Positions 210 to 5,998 of a stretch of 20,431 nucleotides of DNA are shown here, piece by piece. Under the pieces are notes generated by a model. That model was not told the origin of the DNA and did no database searches. It was given only the letters and a program-made list of their open reading frames with translations. This stretch comes from a virus: positions 1 through 20,431 of IMG/VR virus record IMGVR_UViG_3300020446_000103, one strand, 5' to 3'. Each line of letters starts with the position of its first letter. The stretch's first letter is position 1. The position numbers and the translations under genes were made by a program.

Positions 210-363
210 AGGTGGGTAAATAAACCTCTACATCTGTATGACATTTAGGACAGGAAAGGTTTGTCACCATCGTATATTGATCCTGTAAATGTGGAAGACA
301 GTTTTCATCAACACTATGATCTCCGCCCCAAATTAATTCTGTATTACAGTGCCAACAGTTCAT
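196..363 (-). CDS. Small zinc-ribbon protein (CxxC...CxxC), 55 aa
   Basis: A 55-residue frame starts MNCWHCNTELIWGGDHS and ends at a TAA. Two knuckles are visible, C3-W-H-C6 and C38-P-K-C41, separated by 31 residues, the arrangement of a compact treble-clef or zinc-ribbon fold that should bind one zinc ion. Its ATG overlaps the TGA of the upstream membrane-protein gene (ATGA at 360-363), and its own end overlaps the next gene by 14 bases, so it sits firmly inside the operon. Proteins starting with this MNCWHC signature are familiar as conserved hypothetical proteins in marine phages. Regulatory or nucleic-acid binding would be the usual guess for a lone zinc ribbon, but nothing here shows what it binds. 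It is shorter than common gene-finder cut-offs. Confidence 0.75.
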   Translation of the reverse strand: MNCWHCNTELIWGGDHSVDENCLPHLQDQYTMVTNLSCPKCHTDVEVYLPTYAHD

Positions 364-578
364 TTACCAAAAGGGATTGAAATACCAGTGCTGCTAGGCA
401 TTGCGTTATCTAAAGCTTTTGGCATAAGTCCTGATACTTTACCCATAATCTTTTCCATCATCATCTTTTCAAAATTTGGACTTGTCACATATTTGTAACC
501 AGCGTAGCCAGCCCCAATAGTTGTTAATGAAATTAAAAATGATAGGATGGAAAGAATAGAACTTAATTTATTTAGCAT
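360..578 (-). CDS. Small one-span membrane protein, 72 aa
   Basis: This 72-residue protein begins MLNKLSSILSILSFLISL and has a single hydrophobic segment at about residues 6-30, followed by a basic and amphipathic stretch with several methionines and a short Pro/Gly-rich tail. It probably sits in the cytoplasmic membrane with its C-terminus as a soluble tail. Its TGA overlaps the ATG of the zinc-ribbon gene. I recognise no family. Its place at the end of the structural operon, next to an outer-membrane-like gene, would fit a lysis accessory (holin-like) or superinfection-exclusion protein, but there is no second membrane span, lipobox or signal-anchor-release motif that would favour either role. 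Function is left open. Confidence 0.65.
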   Translation of the reverse strand: MLNKLSSILSILSFLISLTTIGAGYAGYKYVTSPNFEKMMMEKIMGKVSGLMPKALDNAMPSSTGISIPFGK

Positions 579-587
579 TTTTTTGAC

Positions 588-719
588 ATGATTAGAGATG
601 CATTTTTGAAGGCATTAGTGCCTGTTACCATTATAACCTTTGTGTCTGTAATGGCTATTGCACCTCTATATGTCACGTTAAGTATGATGACTAGAAGCTA
701 TACTTCAAGCCAACCTTAG
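588..719 (+). CDS. Candidate plus-strand small hydrophobic protein, 43 aa (uncertain)
   Basis: This open frame of 43 codons runs against the rest of the window and fills the only minus-strand intergenic gap of about 110 bases (579-690). It starts MIRDAFLKALVP, has one convincing hydrophobic helix at about residues 10-34 and ends TRSYTSSQP. It overlaps the 3' end of the outer-membrane-like gene tail to tail by 29 bases. There is no Shine-Dalgarno sequence, but most genes here lack one. A competing frame lies on the minus strand: a GTG start at 676 and stop at 572-574, 34 residues, overlapping the start of the 72-aa gene. Both have similar AT bias at the third codon position, so composition does not decide between them; either or neither may be real. 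Confidence 0.25.
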   Translation: MIRDAFLKALVPVTIITFVSVMAIAPLYVTLSMMTRSYTSSQP

Positions 720-1050
720 TTCCGTATGTATTAACGTCATCTGTTACGACAGCGAACTCACCATAAGCATTTAATTTATCGCTTAAATCATATCCGCCAC
801 CAACTTTACCAGAAAGCTTAGTATCAGAATCTCCTACAGAAGGATTGATGAAACTAGGACCACCTTGTAGGTAGAACGATCCGTGCTCTCCCACACTGTT
901 TTCGTAACCGATATGAAGGTCTATTGCATTACCACCCCAATCAGAGCCTACGTTAGTTTGATTAAATTCTGGGTTTAGGTAGAAACCTGCATAAGCTGGA
1001 ACGCTAAGTGCTACAGATGCAGCAGATAGTGTTAAAAGTTTTTTTAGCAT
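691..1050 (-). CDS. Outer-membrane beta-barrel-like protein with signal peptide, 119 aa
   Basis: The N-terminus is a textbook Sec signal peptide: MLKKLLTLSAASVALSVPAYA with a basic start, hydrophobic core and an AYA cleavage site, so the mature protein should begin at Gly22. The mature part has alternating polar and hydrophobic strands with many Gly and aromatic residues (for example HIGYENSVG, GSFYLQGG, KVGGGYDLSDKLNAYGEF) and ends in KVGLKYSF. A terminal Phe preceded by alternating hydrophobics is the usual outer-membrane insertion signal. About 98 mature residues would allow roughly 6-8 strands, a very small barrel. Phages are known to carry outer-membrane proteins that change the host surface (lambda Lom is an example). 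Superinfection exclusion or receptor masking is an inference; a virion role is not excluded. It lies downstream of the fibre genes. Confidence 0.6.
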   Translation of the reverse strand: MLKKLLTLSAASVALSVPAYAGFYLNPEFNQTNVGSDWGGNAIDLHIGYENSVGEHGSFYLQGGPSFINPSVGDSDTKLSGKVGGGYDLSDKLNAYGEFAVVTDDVNTYGTKVGLKYSF

Positions 1051-1084: not shown

Positions 1085-1324
1085 TCAATCTACAGTTTCG
1101 CTTGAGACTTCTTGTGATACTTCCTCTTCTTTCACAAGCTCACACAATTCTGCATATTGTGAATTTTTTATATTAAATTCACCTAAAATTTGAGATTTTT
1201 CACTATCAATCTTTGCTTTTTCATTATCTAATTTTTTCCCTTGTTCATCTAAGGCGTTATATTTATCTGCCAAAGCTTGCGCTTCAGCTTTACGCTCTTC
1301 ACATCTCTTAGATAATTTTGACAT
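1085..1324 (-). CDS. Small coiled-coil protein, 79 aa
   Basis: The protein starts MSKLSKRCEERKAEAQALAD and is almost entirely charged and helical. Residues about 5-65 show heptad-like spacing of Leu, Ala and Ile among Lys and Glu, as expected of a coiled coil, and the last 15 residues are an acidic Glu/Val/Ser tail. Two cysteines (Cys8 and Cys61) lie near the two ends of the helix. There is no signal peptide or membrane segment. I recognise no family. It sits between the distal fibre chaperone and the outer-membrane-like gene. A structural or scaffolding role, or a cytoplasmic lysis-related helix, are guesses the sequence does not test. Confidence 0.6.
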   Translation of the reverse strand: MSKLSKRCEERKAEAQALADKYNALDEQGKKLDNEKAKIDSEKSQILGEFNIKNSQYAELCELVKEEEVSQEVSSETVD

Positions 1325-1382: not shown

Positions 1383-1820
1383 TTACGAACTAGGTTCTGT
1401 AGGCCATGCAATGTTAAATGGATCTGACTGTGTTGGTACGTCACGCAAAGCCTGTCTATAAGTCTTCCAATCATCAGACAAGGTAAGATCGCTGCTAGCT
1501 CTCCAATCTGTATCTTTTAACTTACGTTCTCTTTCAATTCTTACCTCTCCCCATTTATTATTTGTTAAAGTAGTCTGTTCATCTGAAGTTGTAGATTCTA
1601 CCTTAACTGTATAAGCCTTACCACTATCAACATAAGCATCTACTGTAGATAGCTTTTGTGTCGGTGTTGTATAACTAAGAGTTTCTATAAGTTCTACCAC
1701 GTTGTTTGCTGTTAAAAAGTCTGAGTTAGGGCCAGCAGAAGAAAAGCTAGTATTAGGAAATAACTCTTGAAGTGTACCAGTGCTTTTTACAGTAGTGCCA
1801 TCAATAATTGCGTAGTTCAT
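1383..1820 (-). CDS. Tail fibre assembly chaperone-like protein (Phage_tail_APC C-terminus), 145 aa
   Basis: The last 40 residues carry the signature of the small tail-assembly chaperone family: DWRASSDLTLSDDW, then TYRQALRDVPTQ, then NIAWPTEP. This matches the pattern R..R...L..TDW....D..L.....W..YR..LRD(I/V)..q....i.WP..P known from the Phage_tail_APC family (PF16778). The N-terminal 100 residues are different: a short start NYAIIDGTTV and a region like a small sensor or fibre-contact domain. It follows the second propeller-like tip gene, so it probably helps fold or attach that fibre, as small chaperones downstream of fibre genes do in many phages. The 89-aa protein at 4887-5156 has the same C-terminal module with 32 of 39 identical residues and no gaps, but a different N-terminus. 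Confidence 0.65.
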   Translation of the reverse strand: MNYAIIDGTTVKSTGTLQELFPNTSFSSAGPNSDFLTANNVVELIETLSYTTPTQKLSTVDAYVDSGKAYTVKVESTTSDEQTTLTNNKWGEVRIERERKLKDTDWRASSDLTLSDDWKTYRQALRDVPTQSDPFNIAWPTEPSS

Positions 1821-1862
1821 AATTAATTTAAAAGAACTTTACTTTTAATAATTATAATCATT

Positions 1863-2765
1863 TTACTCTCCATAAACCGCATACCTATCATTATCATAAC
1901 CACCTAGTATAAGCTTTCTATTTTTGTAATCCATTCCTAAAGAATAATTAGCAACTCCACTAGCTGAGCTTGTAATGTAATACCATGTATTTTGACTATG
2001 TGTTCCAGTATAACCACTTCCAGATAAAACCATTTCAGTAGCACCGAAATGAGAGATGGGATAATAAGAATTTGTATATCCTTGAATTACTCCTTGTCCT
2101 GTCCAGACTAAACCATTGCTATTTGAAGCATTATTACCACTAGACCATTTTCTTGTAGTACTTATAGTATTACTACTAATACTAGCTGTGCTTGCTGGTA
2201 TATCATAACCATATAACGCAAAATCACTATTATTTAATGTTATTAAATGAGTTCCGCTATAACAAACGCCTCTTGTATTTGCATTGGTAGGATTATTTGA
2301 TGTACCAGTAGTAAAATCTTGATAACCTATATAAGTTCCTGATGGGTAATTAAAATAATAAAATCTTGCATTAGAAGCTGAAACTGCAACAAATACAGGT
2401 GTATTATCGCCTAAATATGCAACAGTAATATCTGAACCAGTACTACCTATTCCTGATGATGTATGCCCTGCTAAATCAGTTTGAGAACCACTTGGTTGAT
2501 AAAGATTTGCATTACCAGAATATGTACTACCTCCATTACTCCATGCGTAACTACTTGCTGTGTTCCATGAAGCATATATTTTACCTTCTGAATGATCGTA
2601 AAATACACCTTTTCCATTATGAGTGGTATTAGAATTACCCGCAAAAAAGTCAGCAGATGTATTGACAATACTTATAGGTGATGCACCAGAAGTAAAAAAT
2701 CCACTATATGCAGAATCATCGAGACCACCACCACCAGCAGCAGCACGGAGCCTATGCGATCTCAT
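1863..2765 (-). CDS. Distal tail fibre or adhesin, propeller-like repeats, copy B, 300 aa
   Basis: This Ser/Gly/Thr/Tyr/Asn-rich protein lacks a signal peptide. After a short N-terminus it reads DDSAYSGFFTSGASP and then a series of similar units of 40-50 residues: VAYLGDNTPVFVA, RFYYFNYPSG, YSGTHLITL, GLVWTGQGVIQG, and finally SLGMDYKNRKLILGGY ending in YAVYGE. These strand-turn-strand units with alternating hydrophobics resemble blades of a beta-propeller; that fold is my inference. The start overlaps the stop of the MSTIKV gene upstream (ATGA at 2762-2765), suggesting the two form one fibre, stem and tip. It is clearly paralogous along its whole length to the 333-aa protein at 3354-4355, with the C-terminal 28 residues best conserved. 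Likely role: binding a host surface receptor. Confidence 0.6.
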   Translation of the reverse strand: MRSHRLRAAAGGGGLDDSAYSGFFTSGASPISIVNTSADFFAGNSNTTHNGKGVFYDHSEGKIYASWNTASSYAWSNGGSTYSGNANLYQPSGSQTDLAGHTSSGIGSTGSDITVAYLGDNTPVFVAVSASNARFYYFNYPSGTYIGYQDFTTGTSNNPTNANTRGVCYSGTHLITLNNSDFALYGYDIPASTASISSNTISTTRKWSSGNNASNSNGLVWTGQGVIQGYTNSYYPISHFGATEMVLSGSGYTGTHSQNTWYYITSSASGVANYSLGMDYKNRKLILGGYDNDRYAVYGE

Positions 2766-3292
2766 CCTAAATCTCCTATTGTAGCCCCATAAAGTGTGCT
2801 TCCGACTTTAAACAATTCGATTGCTGTAGGTGTTGCACCACCTAAGTCTGGAGCAGAACCACCTCTCCATGTCATAGTAGGCCAAGTTAAAGTGTAACTA
2901 GAACCAGTTGCAGTTACTATAAGAAGCATAGATTGACCAGTGGTTAGACTATCAGTTGCAGTTCTATTTGCTCCTAATGTCCAAGTCTGAACCATTCCGT
3001 TATCTGGATCTAAAGCAACAGAAGAAGCATCAGTTATAGCAAATACATTTTCATTTATTGCATCTTCAAAAACAACGGAACCTGTAAACGTACCACCTGT
3101 TGCAGGTAATCCTAATCCTGAACCGCTAAATGATGTTGCAGTACACGTTCCATCAATACTTACACCTGTTGAACTGGTAACTAATTTCTGATTTCCACTG
3201 TGTTTTAATGCAACACTAGAATCTGATGCTATAGATACTGCGTTATCAGAGTTGGACGGATGTTGTATTTCTTCTACTTTTATTGTCGACAT
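2762..3292 (-). CDS. Tail fibre stem protein, MSTIKV type, copy B, 176 aa
   Basis: The protein begins MSTIKVEEIQHPSNSDN, a start shared with neighbouring fibre genes and common, in my experience, at the N-terminus of marine phage fibre proteins, where it may be the part that docks on the virion. Residues about 45-75 contain GTCTATSFSGSGLGLPATGG, the G-x-x-(T)-A-T-S-F-S-G motif typical of triple-beta fibre shafts. The C-terminal half has WPTMTWRGGSAPDLGG followed by IELFKVGSTLYG, which has a counterpart in the 173-aa protein at 4359-4880 (HWVGGSAPSDGG...). It is coupled to the propeller-like gene downstream by a 4-base overlap. Role: fibre shaft or adaptor. Confidence that it is a fibre protein is good; the exact position in the virion is unknown. 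Confidence 0.65.
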   Translation of the reverse strand: MSTIKVEEIQHPSNSDNAVSIASDSSVALKHSGNQKLVTSSTGVSIDGTCTATSFSGSGLGLPATGGTFTGSVVFEDAINENVFAITDASSVALDPDNGMVQTWTLGANRTATDSLTTGQSMLLIVTATGSSYTLTWPTMTWRGGSAPDLGGATPTAIELFKVGSTLYGATIGDLG

Positions 3293-3353
3293 AATAATTT
3301 ACTGCTTTAGTTTAATTTTACTATTAATTTTAAATATTGTCTCACAAGCAATT

Positions 3354-4355
3354 TTACTCTCCAAAAACTCTATATTTGTCACCGTTATAACCCCCTAATA
3401 TTAATTTTCTATTTTGATAATCTATTCCCAGACTCCAAAGATTTTCTCCATACGCAAATGACCTTATTAAAGTGCTTGTACCATTCATTCCATTGTTAGT
3501 CAATCGTCTATATTCAGCAGTTTGTCTATTACCATTTGTTCCCATAATCACACCATCACCTGTCCAAGCTAATCCATGAAAATTACCGTCATAACCCATT
3601 GTCCATCTTAAGTTTGCTGTCATGTCGTTGGATGAAGCAGTACTTATATTTGATGTACTTGCTGGCATGGGAAAACCATACATATAAGCATTACCACTGC
3701 TGTGAGAACCTCTACGCATTGTTATGATATGTGTTCCAGTAAAAGCTATTTTAGCTTGGTGCATACTAGATGACTCAGGGCCATTAGTCCCACCAATAGT
3801 TATATTGCATTTTCCTATAAAATTACCGCTTGGATATTCAAAAAAATAAAACCTACGATTACTAGAACTGCCAGCAGCTACTAAAACTGGAGTTTGATCT
3901 CCAAGATAACCAACAGTGAAACCGCCAGCGTGCGGATCACCTGCTGTATCACTATTATTGGCATTATCTAAATTTGCAAAAGCAGAGCCATTACTGCTTA
4001 CTGCATAAAAATTAGCGTTTCCAGTATAGGATGAGCCACCATTACTCCAATCCCATATCCAAGGATCAACAGCACTAGTGTAATTGTTATTACCAAATAT
4101 TTTTTGACTATAATTATCAAAAAATGCAGATCCGTAGGCATCATGCGTATTGCCAGATAATCCACTTGTACCAGAAGATGAAAACTCATCATAGGATGAG
4201 TTATCAAAATCTAAAGGACTAGCACTTTTTGAAAAAAATCCACTATGAGCAGCATCATAAGGATCTCCACTTGATACAACAGACAGTGAAGCAGCACCAC
4301 CACCAAGACCTGTCATTGACAAAGGTTTGTTGTATGTCCAAAAATCTTGCTTCAT
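3354..4355 (-). CDS. Distal tail fibre or adhesin, propeller-like repeats, copy A, 333 aa
   Basis: This protein has the same design as the product of 1863-2765 but is 33 residues longer, mostly in the N-terminus (MKQDFWTYNKPLSMTG) and in loops. Repeated units are VGYLGDQTPVLVAAG, RRFYFFEYPSGNFIG, AFTGTHIITM, GLAWTGDGVIMG and SLGIDYQNRKLILGGY, ending YRVFGE. The framework strands are conserved between the two copies while the connecting loops differ in sequence and length, as expected of paralogous receptor-binding proteins recognising different ligands. It follows the 173-aa MSTIKV stem gene by 3 bases. A glycan- or protein-binding propeller at the fibre tip is inferred from pattern; no catalytic residues (such as a glycosidase pair) are recognisable. 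Confidence 0.6.
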   Translation of the reverse strand: MKQDFWTYNKPLSMTGLGGGAASLSVVSSGDPYDAAHSGFFSKSASPLDFDNSSYDEFSSSGTSGLSGNTHDAYGSAFFDNYSQKIFGNNNYTSAVDPWIWDWSNGGSSYTGNANFYAVSSNGSAFANLDNANNSDTAGDPHAGGFTVGYLGDQTPVLVAAGSSSNRRFYFFEYPSGNFIGKCNITIGGTNGPESSSMHQAKIAFTGTHIITMRRGSHSSGNAYMYGFPMPASTSNISTASSNDMTANLRWTMGYDGNFHGLAWTGDGVIMGTNGNRQTAEYRRLTNNGMNGTSTLIRSFAYGENLWSLGIDYQNRKLILGGYNGDKYRVFGE

Positions 4356-4358
4356 TAA

Positions 4359-4880
4359 TTATGATGTTTTACTTTGGTTTCCAATCGCTTTAAATGTAGC
4401 ATCTCCTATTTTTATTATTGTGTAAGAGTAAATATCAACACCACCTGTACCACCATCTGAAGGTGCAGATCCTCCTACCCAATGAGTTAATCCAAAACCT
4501 GTAGTGCCATCGATTGATAATTGTGCAGAATAACCAGCAGCACCAGCATTTGTGATAATAGTCACTGATATAACTTCTCCATAAGACATCTTACTGTTAA
4601 GAGTCTCGGAACTACTAAATCTAATATTAGGTGTAGATGTAGTTGATTCTGTAGTTAAAAAGTAATGCACCATTCCATTTTCTAAATCAATATTTGTATT
4701 ATCACTTAACTTGCCATTAGTTATTTTGACACCTTCTTTAAGTAAACCAGAAAGGTCAACTGACCCAAAAAAAGTTGTAGCTGTACAATCACCATTAACA
4801 GTCGCACCAGTGTTAGTAAGATTGATTGTTGAGGAAGAGTGTTGTCTAGATTGAATGGTATCTACTTTTATTGTTGACAT
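4359..4880 (-). CDS. Tail fibre stem protein, MSTIKV type, copy A, 173 aa
   Basis: It begins MSTIKVDTIQSRQHSSSTIN, the clearest example in this window of the shared fibre start, and continues with GDCTATTFFGSVDLSGLL, a fibre-shaft motif matching that of its paralogue at 2762-3292. The C-terminal half contains HYFLTTESTTST, a SAQLSIDGTTGFGLTHWVGG stretch and a last segment IIKIGDATFKAIGN that parallels IELFKVGSTLYGATIG of the paralogue. The proteins are nearly the same length (173 and 176). It lies 6 bases downstream of the 89-aa chaperone gene and 3 bases upstream of the 333-aa tip gene. Likely forms the stem that carries that tip. Confidence 0.65.
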   Translation of the reverse strand: MSTIKVDTIQSRQHSSSTINLTNTGATVNGDCTATTFFGSVDLSGLLKEGVKITNGKLSDNTNIDLENGMVHYFLTTESTTSTPNIRFSSSETLNSKMSYGEVISVTIITNAGAAGYSAQLSIDGTTGFGLTHWVGGSAPSDGGTGGVDIYSYTIIKIGDATFKAIGNQSKTS

Positions 4881-4886
4881 AATAAT

Positions 4887-5156
4887 TTAGTTAGGTTTTG
4901 TAGGCCAAGTAATATTATCTGGATCGTTTTGTGTTGGGACATCTCTAAGAGCCTGACGATAGGTTTTCCATTCGTCAGAAAGAGTAACATCACTAAAAGC
5001 TCTCCAATCACATTCTGCTAATAAATAATTTCTATGTGTTCGTACATCTTGCCATTTTCCAGCAAGAATTTCAGCATCTGTTGGAAGACTTGCATTGTAT
5101 TCTGCGATTTCTGCATCAGTCATTGCGACTAATACACCATTTAAATACTTGTTCAT
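4887..5156 (-). CDS. Tail fibre assembly chaperone-like protein (Phage_tail_APC), 89 aa
   Basis: The protein begins MNKYLNGVLVAMTDAEIAEY, a common start of short tail-assembly chaperones in which a few residues copy a fibre end and are followed by a 'M(T)xAEIAE' helix. The C-terminal half holds VRTHRNYLLAECDWRAF, then TLSDEWKTYRQALRDVPTQ, then NITWPTKP, the full signature of PF16778. Length is normal for the family. Its ATG shares one base with the stop of the fibre gene at 5156-5998 (TAATG), so the two are translationally coupled; it probably helps that fibre, or the 173/333-aa fibre downstream, to trimerise or attach. The 145-aa protein at 1383-1820 repeats the C-terminal module. Confidence 0.75.
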   Translation of the reverse strand: MNKYLNGVLVAMTDAEIAEYNASLPTDAEILAGKWQDVRTHRNYLLAECDWRAFSDVTLSDEWKTYRQALRDVPTQNDPDNITWPTKPN

Positions 5157-5998
5157 TAGCTTTCTTTAAGTTTGAAAAGAATCATTTCAGTACCTACGTT
5201 AAAAGTACCACTATTGTCAACAGTAAATCTTAAACCAGATACTCTATTTGTTGCAGGTGCATAGTTATAGTGTCTTAATATTCCACTAAATTCAATCCTG
5301 TTTAATTGAGATCCTAGACCTTGAGATATTCCTCTAATCCAACTGTTATTTTCAGTACTAAAGTCTATTTCAAATGATTCACCACCATCATTCCCACTGT
5401 AAGCTACAACAGTACCACCATGATTTATTACTAATCGGTCTTGCAGGTAATTATTTACATAAGGAGAATAATTACCATAATTTTTATAAACGTAGTCCCA
5501 TCCACCAGTTACAACACTGCTGCCTCCATTTATAAATGGTGCAATTTCTACTTTATAGGTTGCAGTTCTAAGAACTTTCTTTCCTACAATTTTATAAACA
5601 CCAGTACTTAATCCACCTGTAGGGTTAAAATCTATTTGAGATGCAGTAGATGTTAATGAAGTTTTGCTTACAAAATCATAAGCACCACCACCACCTGCAT
5701 CTGCATATTCCAACTGTCCTACTGCTTCATTTGCTGGAGTTCCTGTAACGCTTTTTACTCTCAAAAACTTACCAGCCTGAATATTGTTATCTGGCAGAAT
5801 CATTGTATAAGACTGACCAGCAATATGATTGGGAGATTTTATCTTTACACCATGAGTTTGTGCAGAGCAATTTAACCGAATCATTGCGTCATCTCCACCC
5901 GCACCCTTAATCTCTAACTTACCTGTACCGTTAGGAATAATTCTTACATTTCCATCTGCAGTATCAGTTTGAATTTCGTCAACAATAACTTTTGACAT
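5156..5998 (-). CDS. Tail fibre protein with MSKVIVDEIQ start, 280 aa
   Basis: The first ten residues, MSKVIVDEIQ, are a variant of the MSTIKV start. They are followed by GNVRIIPNGTGKLEIKG, a GxGxLxIKG pattern often seen in marine phage fibres, and by a linker with a glycine run (about residues 104-108). The C-terminal 170 residues (from YDFVSKTSLTSTASQIDF on) alternate strands and contain WDYVYKNYGNYSPYVNNY and GLRFTVDNSGTFNVGTEMIL, which resembles a jelly-roll-like fibre tip in which C1q/TNF-like folds are common. That fold is inferred. The gene is preceded by a 52-base gap and coupled to the chaperone gene downstream. Role: virion-attached fibre that contacts the host. Confidence 0.6.
   Translation of the reverse strand: MSKVIVDEIQTDTADGNVRIIPNGTGKLEIKGAGGDDAMIRLNCSAQTHGVKIKSPNHIAGQSYTMILPDNNIQAGKFLRVKSVTGTPANEAVGQLEYADAGGGGAYDFVSKTSLTSTASQIDFNPTGGLSTGVYKIVGKKVLRTATYKVEIAPFINGGSSVVTGGWDYVYKNYGNYSPYVNNYLQDRLVINHGGTVVAYSGNDGGESFEIDFSTENNSWIRGISQGLGSQLNRIEFSGILRHYNYAPATNRVSGLRFTVDNSGTFNVGTEMILFKLKES

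What the first reader, a model, noticed from the sequence alone, without database searches (positions are those of the whole stretch)
1383..5156. Two paralogous host-recognition cassettes in tandem
The 89-aa chaperone, the 173-aa MSTIKV stem and the 333-aa tip in one set (5156-3354) have counterparts in the 145-aa chaperone, the 176-aa stem and the 300-aa tip (3292-1383). In both sets the stem is directly followed by the tip, but the chaperone precedes the stem in one and follows the tip in the other. This suggests duplication followed by rearrangement and diversification, so that one phage could show two receptor-binding fibres.
Basis: partly seen in the sequence, partly recalled or inferred. 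Interest (0 to 1): 0.7.

Follow-up and report, generated by a model that had tools for sequence, protein, structure and literature searches.

The report
Phage fibres with swappable plug-in tips
This marine phage carries three neighbouring host-binding fibres, two of which seem to be stalks holding a separate, exchangeable tip protein through a matching short connector, so the two look-alike sets are better read as two tips picked up from a pool shared among phages than as one set copied twice.

Summary
The two tips are clear homologues (39% over 311 aa); the chaperones share only their last 56 aa (68%), the stems only their first residues plus a remote terminal domain. Duplication with rearrangement is not supported. 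TipA's body is 96% identical to a tip in another contig, behind a B-type stem; an AU test rejects tipA+tipB as sisters (p=6e-51); in 12 distinct arrays with both cassette types, only this lineage has same-family tips. The 89-aa chaperone was not moved: its relatives follow p280-type one-piece fibres (28 cases), never an A-type tip.

149 non-redundant stem-tip gene pairs show a plug-and-socket pattern. Each stem ends in one of three domain types, and the next gene starts with a matching short peptide (147/149; shuffled mean 63, maximum 90). Behind it sit 35 body families, four found behind more than one peptide type. The window tips are predicted five-bladed beta-propellers without detected relatives in 50,697 phage records. 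The chaperone after B tips tracks the stem, not the tip. Most likely mechanism: gp37/gp38-like two-part fibres with orthogonal sockets. Docking and receptor binding are inferred, not shown.

The parts
5156..5998 (-).
   Evidence: p280 C-terminal domain then chaperone in 28 distinct loci; its N-terminal 100 aa is 75% identical to the N-terminus of A-type stems in L005 and L015
4887..5156 (-). 89-aa tail-fibre assembly chaperone (PF16778 domain at residues 36-89), most likely serving p280
   Evidence: PF16778 E=8e-17; 1-nt overlap with p280; neighbour statistics
4359..4880 (-). Stem A, 173 aa: MSTIKV anchor plus A-type C-terminal socket domain (residues 41-173, window 4760-4359; matches phrog_5906)
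   Evidence: socket ends within 6 residues of the C-terminus in all 62 distinct A-type ORFs
3354..4355 (-). Tip A, 333 aa: plug A (residues 1 to about 25, window 4355-4281, MKQDFWTYNKPLSMTGLGGGAASL) plus five-bladed beta-propeller body (about 50-333)
   Evidence: plug shared with unrelated bodies; AlphaFold2 pTM 0.77, mean pLDDT 70; VIA-align Z 17.9 to 3nol
2762..3292 (-). Stem B, 176 aa: MSTIKV anchor plus B-type C-terminal socket domain (window 3094-2762)
   Evidence: socket ends within 2 residues of the C-terminus in all 64 distinct B-type ORFs
1863..2765 (-). Tip B, 300 aa: plug B (MRSHRLRAA, window 2765-2739) plus propeller-family body, 39% identical to tip A
1383..1820 (-). 145-aa chaperone: PF16778 domain at residues 92-143 plus an 88-aa N-terminal part that tracks stem B, not the tip body
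   Evidence: PF16778 E=3e-15; N-terminal part correlates with stem 0.71, with body 0.18

Best explanation
The window holds an array of three fibres of a probable cyanobacterial siphophage: a one-piece fibre with its chaperone (p280 + 89 aa), and two two-part fibres (stem A + tip A; stem B + tip B + 145-aa chaperone). In the two-part fibres the stem ends in a socket domain, and the next gene encodes a separate tip whose short N-terminal plug matches that socket type; the rest of the tip, here a five-bladed beta-propeller, is the receptor-binding body. Because plugs match sockets and bodies are little constrained, recombination just behind the plug swaps bodies among stems and among phages, and several socket types let one genome encode several tips. 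The two tips here are members of one body family acquired separately, not a duplicated cassette. Shown: gene order, plug/socket matching, body exchange across plug types, rejection of a sister pair. Predicted: the propeller fold. Inferred: physical docking, receptor binding, display on virions, chaperone clients.
For: (1) In 149 non-redundant stem-tip gene pairs, the nearest plug among tips with unrelated bodies belongs to the same stem type in 147 (shuffled mean 63, maximum 90). (2) The socket is always at the stem's extreme C-terminus (138 distinct ORFs, at most 6 residues follow; never fused to a tip). (3) Plug A is nearly invariant for 24 residues in seven tips with unrelated bodies and then falls to background; its codons differ more often synonymously (91) than non-synonymously (52), so it is conserved as protein. 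(4) The same body occurs behind different plugs: tipA body behind plug A here and plug B in L004 (96% nt, break at codon ~32); L015 (plug A) and L040/L041/L081/L007 (plug C), 81-85%; four of 35 body families span more than one plug type. (5) AU test rejects tipA+tipB, p=6e-51; only 1 of 12 distinct A+B arrays has same-family tips. (6) Chaperone pairing: after tip B 59, after tip A 0, after p280-type fibres 28. (7) Five-bladed propeller model matching 3nol at Z 17.9 and the phi11 receptor-binding protein 5efv at Z 12.9; phi11's propeller carries the proposed GlcNAc site and also matched 3nol best (PMC4901313). (8) Precedent: S16 gp38 docks on the gp37 trimer through an N-terminal domain (PMC6851490); T2 gp37 did not work with PP01 gp38 until the gp38 N-terminus was exchanged (PMC12892980).
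Against: No physical interaction or virion data. Plug and socket are adjacent in the DNA, so linkage alone would keep them together; within one stem type the stem-plug distance correlation is modest (0.37 for A, 0.28 for B) and for B the plug-body correlation is higher (0.57). Nearest body neighbours share stem type in 136 of 149, so bodies are not freely shuffled. The plug is unstructured in the monomer model (pLDDT about 33). The clearest body exchange involving the window rests on one short metagenomic contig (L004). The stem B model is poor (pTM 0.49) with no significant fold match.
Confidence: 0.72

Rival explanations
1. Tandem duplication of a stem-tip-chaperone cassette in this lineage, then rearrangement of the chaperone and divergence.
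For: Tips are homologous and adjacent; stems share their first 20 nt (95%) and a remote C-terminal domain; chaperones share a domain.
Against: Every part has closer relatives in other phages; AU p=6e-51; 11 of 12 distinct A+B arrays have tips of unrelated families; the 89-aa chaperone belongs to p280-type fibres in relatives. A very old duplication of the socket domain itself, giving types A and B, is not excluded.
Confidence: 0.06
2. Plug conservation is only linkage: the first codons of the tip ride with the stem because recombination breaks behind them, or the conserved start serves as a recombination anchor, without protein docking.
For: Stem and plug are contiguous; the tip breakpoint lies just behind the plug.
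Against: Plug differences are mostly synonymous, so conservation is at protein level; plug motifs persist across A-type sockets of very different sequence; conservation stops sharply after about 24 residues.
Confidence: 0.15
3. The second genes are not receptor-binding tips but enzymes (for example a propeller enzyme acting on the cell surface) or capping proteins.
For: Best fold match is glutaminyl cyclase, an enzyme; Tfa proteins of some phages stay on the fibre end (PMC9608196).
Against: Only 18 columns are invariant across 18 homologues and no obvious catalytic set stands out; bodies behind the same plugs include lectin-like (Laminin_G_3) and glycine-rich ones, a repertoire expected of adhesins.
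Confidence: 0.12

Closest known systems
gp37/gp38 long tail fibre of T2-like phages (Salmonella phage S16, PDB 6F45; coliphages T2, PP01)
   Same: Separate adhesin gene directly after the shaft gene; N-terminal attachment region matched to the shaft end; variable distal body; matching shown experimentally for T2/PP01 (PMC12892980).
   Different: Window tips match no Pfam family and are predicted beta-propellers, not polyglycine sandwiches; the plug is about 9-25 residues, not a roughly 110-residue domain; several socket types occur side by side in one genome.
Tail-fibre assembly chaperones (Tfa / PF16778; Pam3 gp25, Mu Tfa)
   Same: Conserved C-terminal domain, variable N-terminal part, gene downstream of the fibre; Pam3 gp25 has this split (PMC9608196).
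   Different: For B cassettes the N-terminal part follows the stem type rather than the tip body encoded directly before it.
Receptor-binding protein Gp45 of Staphylococcus phage phi11 (5efv)
   Same: Five-bladed propeller; same best solved match (3nol).
   Different: Single long homotrimeric polypeptide with stem, platform and tower, not a two-gene plug-in tip.
P-SSM7 gp41/gp42, Roseobacter phage CRP-1 gp42/gp41/gp40, S-CREM2 gp115/gp116/gp117
   Same: Distant cultured relatives of the A-type (P-SSM7) or B-type (CRP-1, S-CREM2) layout: socket at the stem end, tip gene next; CRP-1 and S-CREM2 also have a chaperone next.
   Different: Annotated only as hypothetical, tail structural or 'sericin 1 precursor-like'; different tip bodies and diverged plugs.

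Membership tests
T2/S16-type gp37-gp38 two-part fibre | Adhesin encoded as a separate gene directly downstream of the fibre shaft gene | tested here: met
   3-nt gap (A) and 4-nt overlap (B) in the window; same layout in 149 pairs
T2/S16-type gp37-gp38 two-part fibre | Conserved N-terminal attachment region matched to the shaft end, variable distal body | tested here: met
   147/149 plug-socket agreement, 35 body families; by sequence only
T2/S16-type gp37-gp38 two-part fibre | Sequence membership of the gp38 adhesin family | tested here: not met
   no Pfam family for either window tip and none of adhesin type for any of 18 family members; no PHROG
T2/S16-type gp37-gp38 two-part fibre | Polyglycine sandwich receptor-binding domain | tested here: not met
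   tip A model is a beta-propeller; some sister tips in other loci are glycine-rich
T2/S16-type gp37-gp38 two-part fibre | One adhesin docked on a trimeric shaft | not testable with these tools
   only single chains can be predicted here
PF16778 tail-fibre assembly chaperones | Profile match above curated cut-off | tested here: met
   61.2 and 56.4 bits against 26.6
PF16778 tail-fibre assembly chaperones | Gene directly downstream of the fibre it serves | tested here: met
   after p280-type fibres 28 and after tip B 59 distinct cases; which chain is the client is inferred
Five-bladed beta-propeller receptor-binding proteins (phi11 Gp45) | Five-bladed propeller fold | tested here: met
   pTM 0.77; strands in five groups; Z 17.9 to 3nol, 12.9 to 5efv; prediction only
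Five-bladed beta-propeller receptor-binding proteins (phi11 Gp45) | Stem and propeller in one trimeric polypeptide | tested here: not met
   stem and tip are separate genes here and never fused in 138 socket ORFs

The most novel reading that the evidence does not exclude
Marine phages of several tail types share an adhesin platform with at least three orthogonal plug/socket pairs. A common pool of tip bodies (35 families here, including a five-bladed propeller family not seen in sequenced phage isolates) is re-mounted between sockets by recombination behind the plug, a genome can carry several socket types and so display several unrelated receptor-binding tips at once, and the chaperone is matched to the socket stem rather than to the tip.
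Probability: 0.5. Interest if true: 0.75.

Novelty: new variant of a known kind. Interest (0 to 1): 0.58.

Why it matters
Tail-fibre variability in marine phages is well documented, but how unrelated receptor-binding domains can be exchanged without breaking virion assembly is not. A short plug read by a socket would explain it, would let receptor-binding genes be found in viromes by their connector rather than by their body (most bodies here match no family), and makes testable predictions about which tips can sit on which stems. It also identifies 'sericin-like' and hypothetical proteins of cultured cyanophages as probable fibre stems and tips.

Tried and rejected
Recent duplication: rejected. 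Chaperone relocation: rejected. Stem-tip gene fusions as evidence of contact: none found (a first count was confounded by minor domain hits and is not used). Known family for the tips: none in Pfam or PHROGs, no significant PDB sequence match, no tblastn match in 50,697 phage records, no relative in 84,980 bacterial/archaeal genomes at the sensitivity of that scan. Stem B fold: model poor, Foldseek gave nothing significant. Whole-window search for near relatives among phage records: none. Literature searches for a description of this plug/socket arrangement in marine phages found none in the held library, which lacks most subscription papers; the Trojet 2011 paper on gp38 modularity was not held.

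Full report
Observation. Tip A (333 aa) and tip B (300 aa) are 39% identical over 311 aa (E=4e-52), far above shuffled scores. The 89-aa and 145-aa chaperones share only their last 56 residues (68%), and both carry PF16778 there. The stems share an opening of about ten residues and a remotely related end (25%, E=6e-6; profile comparison probability 86%).

Relatives. Protein searches of IMG/VR with the tips and with the stem ends gave more than 150 loci from marine contigs. Comparing gene order shows that the 89-aa type of chaperone follows fibres with the C-terminal domain of the 280-aa protein (28 distinct cases). The 145-aa type follows B-type tips (59 cases). No A-type tip of about 60 is followed by a chaperone. 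So the 89-aa chaperone most likely serves the 280-aa fibre and has not been rearranged; in both window cases the chaperone then lies downstream of its fibre, as is usual.

Not a duplication. TipA's body is 96% identical, in protein and DNA, to a tip in L004 that sits behind a B-type stem and begins with a B-type start; the DNA identity begins near codon 32 and ends at the stop codon. TipB, both stem ends and both chaperones also have much closer relatives in other contigs than in the window. A tree of 18 tip bodies places tipA with L004 (100/100) and tipB with L002 and others; holding tipA and tipB together is rejected (AU p=6.4e-51; the presence of near-identical relatives makes this rejection strong). 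Of 12 distinct contig arrays with both an A and a B pair, only this lineage has tips of one family. Two acquisitions fit; a recent duplication does not.

Plug and socket. Among 149 non-redundant stem-tip pairs (64 A, 72 B, 13 C), the stem's C-terminal domain predicts the first residues of the next gene. A stems are followed by tips that mostly begin with a short stretch, then a P-L-x-x-x-x-G-x-GGG pattern, for example MKQDYWTYNKPLSMTGFGGGATSL. B stems are mostly followed by M(RS/TLS/RN)HxLRxA. C stems are mostly followed by MTIQQMFFG or close variants. When tips with similar bodies are excluded, the nearest plug has the same stem type in 147 of 149 (2000 shuffles: mean 63, maximum 90). The socket is always at the very end of the stem protein (138 ORFs) and is never fused to a tip. 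In seven A-type tips with unrelated bodies, plug residues 1-24 are nearly invariant and conservation then drops; codon differences are 91 synonymous against 52 non-synonymous, so the peptide is held at protein level.

Bodies. Behind these plugs lie 35 body families by a loose single-linkage criterion; four occur behind more than one plug type. Besides the window family there are lectin-like Laminin_G_3 bodies and glycine-rich bodies that recall gp38 adhesins; the glycine-rich body of L015 (plug A) and of L007/L040/L041/L081 (plug C) is 81-85% identical. The window family has no relative detected in phage records, Pfam, PHROGs, PDB sequences or the genome collection. AlphaFold2 on an 18-sequence alignment gives mean pLDDT 70, pTM 0.77: residues 1-34 without structure, the rest in strands that group into five blades, matching five similar sequence motifs at tip A residues 76, 148, 203, 262 and 310. 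VIA-align 2 ranks five-bladed propellers first (3nol, Z 17.9, 2.8 A over 207 residues) and includes the phi11 receptor-binding protein (5efv, Z 12.9). The phi11 paper reports the same best match for its propeller and models GlcNAc in it (PMC4901313).

Chaperone and stem. Across 58 B cassettes the N-terminal 80 residues of the chaperone average 59% identity even between cassettes with unrelated tips; they correlate with the stem (0.71) and hardly with the tip body (0.18). This suggests that the chaperone folds the stem, and that the tip gene is an insert between a stem and its chaperone. In Pam3 the chaperone's variable N-terminal part binds the fibre and its conserved C-terminal part trimerises (PMC9608196), which agrees with the pattern here. 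Shared flanks could also produce this pattern, so it is an inference.

Ongoing exchange. L002 is nearly identical to the window over about 6.5 kb and then differs at 101 positions between window 2166 and 1409, across the last third of tipB and the chaperone. In L004 the two tips are separated by a scar: the first 14 codons of the chaperone joined in frame to the last 10 codons of the stem, as expected if a second tip was inserted by unequal recombination, leaving two B-plug tips behind one B stem. This rests on one short contig.

Context. The window has no near relative among phage records. Its tail-tip and tape-measure proteins are distantly related to those of cyanosiphoviruses S-CBS1, S-CBS3 and S-LBS1, and it encodes a Phage_OMP protein (PF24653), so a picocyanobacterial host is likely but unproven. 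Distant sequenced examples of the layout are P-SSM7 gp41/gp42, CRP-1 gp42/gp41/gp40 and S-CREM2 gp115/gp116/gp117; the single-cell virus AG-345-E15 has an A-type stem followed by a tip starting MNFLNGVKQSPLQGLNGLGGG.

How it most likely works. Stems attach to the tail by their common N-terminal motif (inferred). Each stem, probably a trimer (inferred from known fibres), ends in a socket; the separate tip inserts its plug and presents its body to the cell. Orthogonal sockets keep several tips apart in one virion. The closest precedent is gp37/gp38: S16 gp38 docks on gp37 through its N-terminal domain (PMC6851490), and PP01 gp38 worked on T2 gp37 only with the T2 N-terminal 113 residues (PMC12892980). 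The window system works like that pair but is not a sequence or fold member of the gp38 family. The main open alternative is that the plug is kept only by linkage; the synonymous excess and sharp boundary argue against it but do not replace a binding test.

Noticed in passing
L004:4112-4186: Scar of 14 chaperone codons fused in frame to 10 stem codons between two B-plug tips that share one B stem: looks like the footprint of tip-gene insertion.
   Followed up: partly
window 2166-1409 against L002: Otherwise near-identical phages differ in one tract covering the end of tipB and the chaperone: recent allele exchange.
   Followed up: partly
window 5998-5698: The N-terminal 100 aa of p280 (MSKVIVDEIQT..) is also used as the N-terminus of A-type stems in L005 and L015, so fibre anchors are mosaic too.
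   Followed up: partly
window 4861-4880 and 3273-3292: Both stem genes begin with nearly the same 20 nt (ATGTC[A/G]ACAATAAAAGTA..), a possible recombination anchor as well as a protein motif.
   Followed up: no
window 1085-1324: 79-aa probable coiled-coil protein (weak Spectrin/ZapB-like hits) just downstream of the fibre array.
   Followed up: no
window 691-1050: 119-aa Phage_OMP (PF24653) beta-barrel protein with signal-like N-terminus, a family named for cyanophages; role unclear.
   Followed up: no
window 360-578: 72-aa protein matching phrog_568, annotated 'plasmid stability'; some related phages carry a counterpart after the array.
   Followed up: no
L008:3192-4325 and L035: A C-like stem variant is followed by a different start (MPTSQILLATTKSS), possibly a fourth plug type; its body is shared with MTIQQMFF-type tips.
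   Followed up: partly
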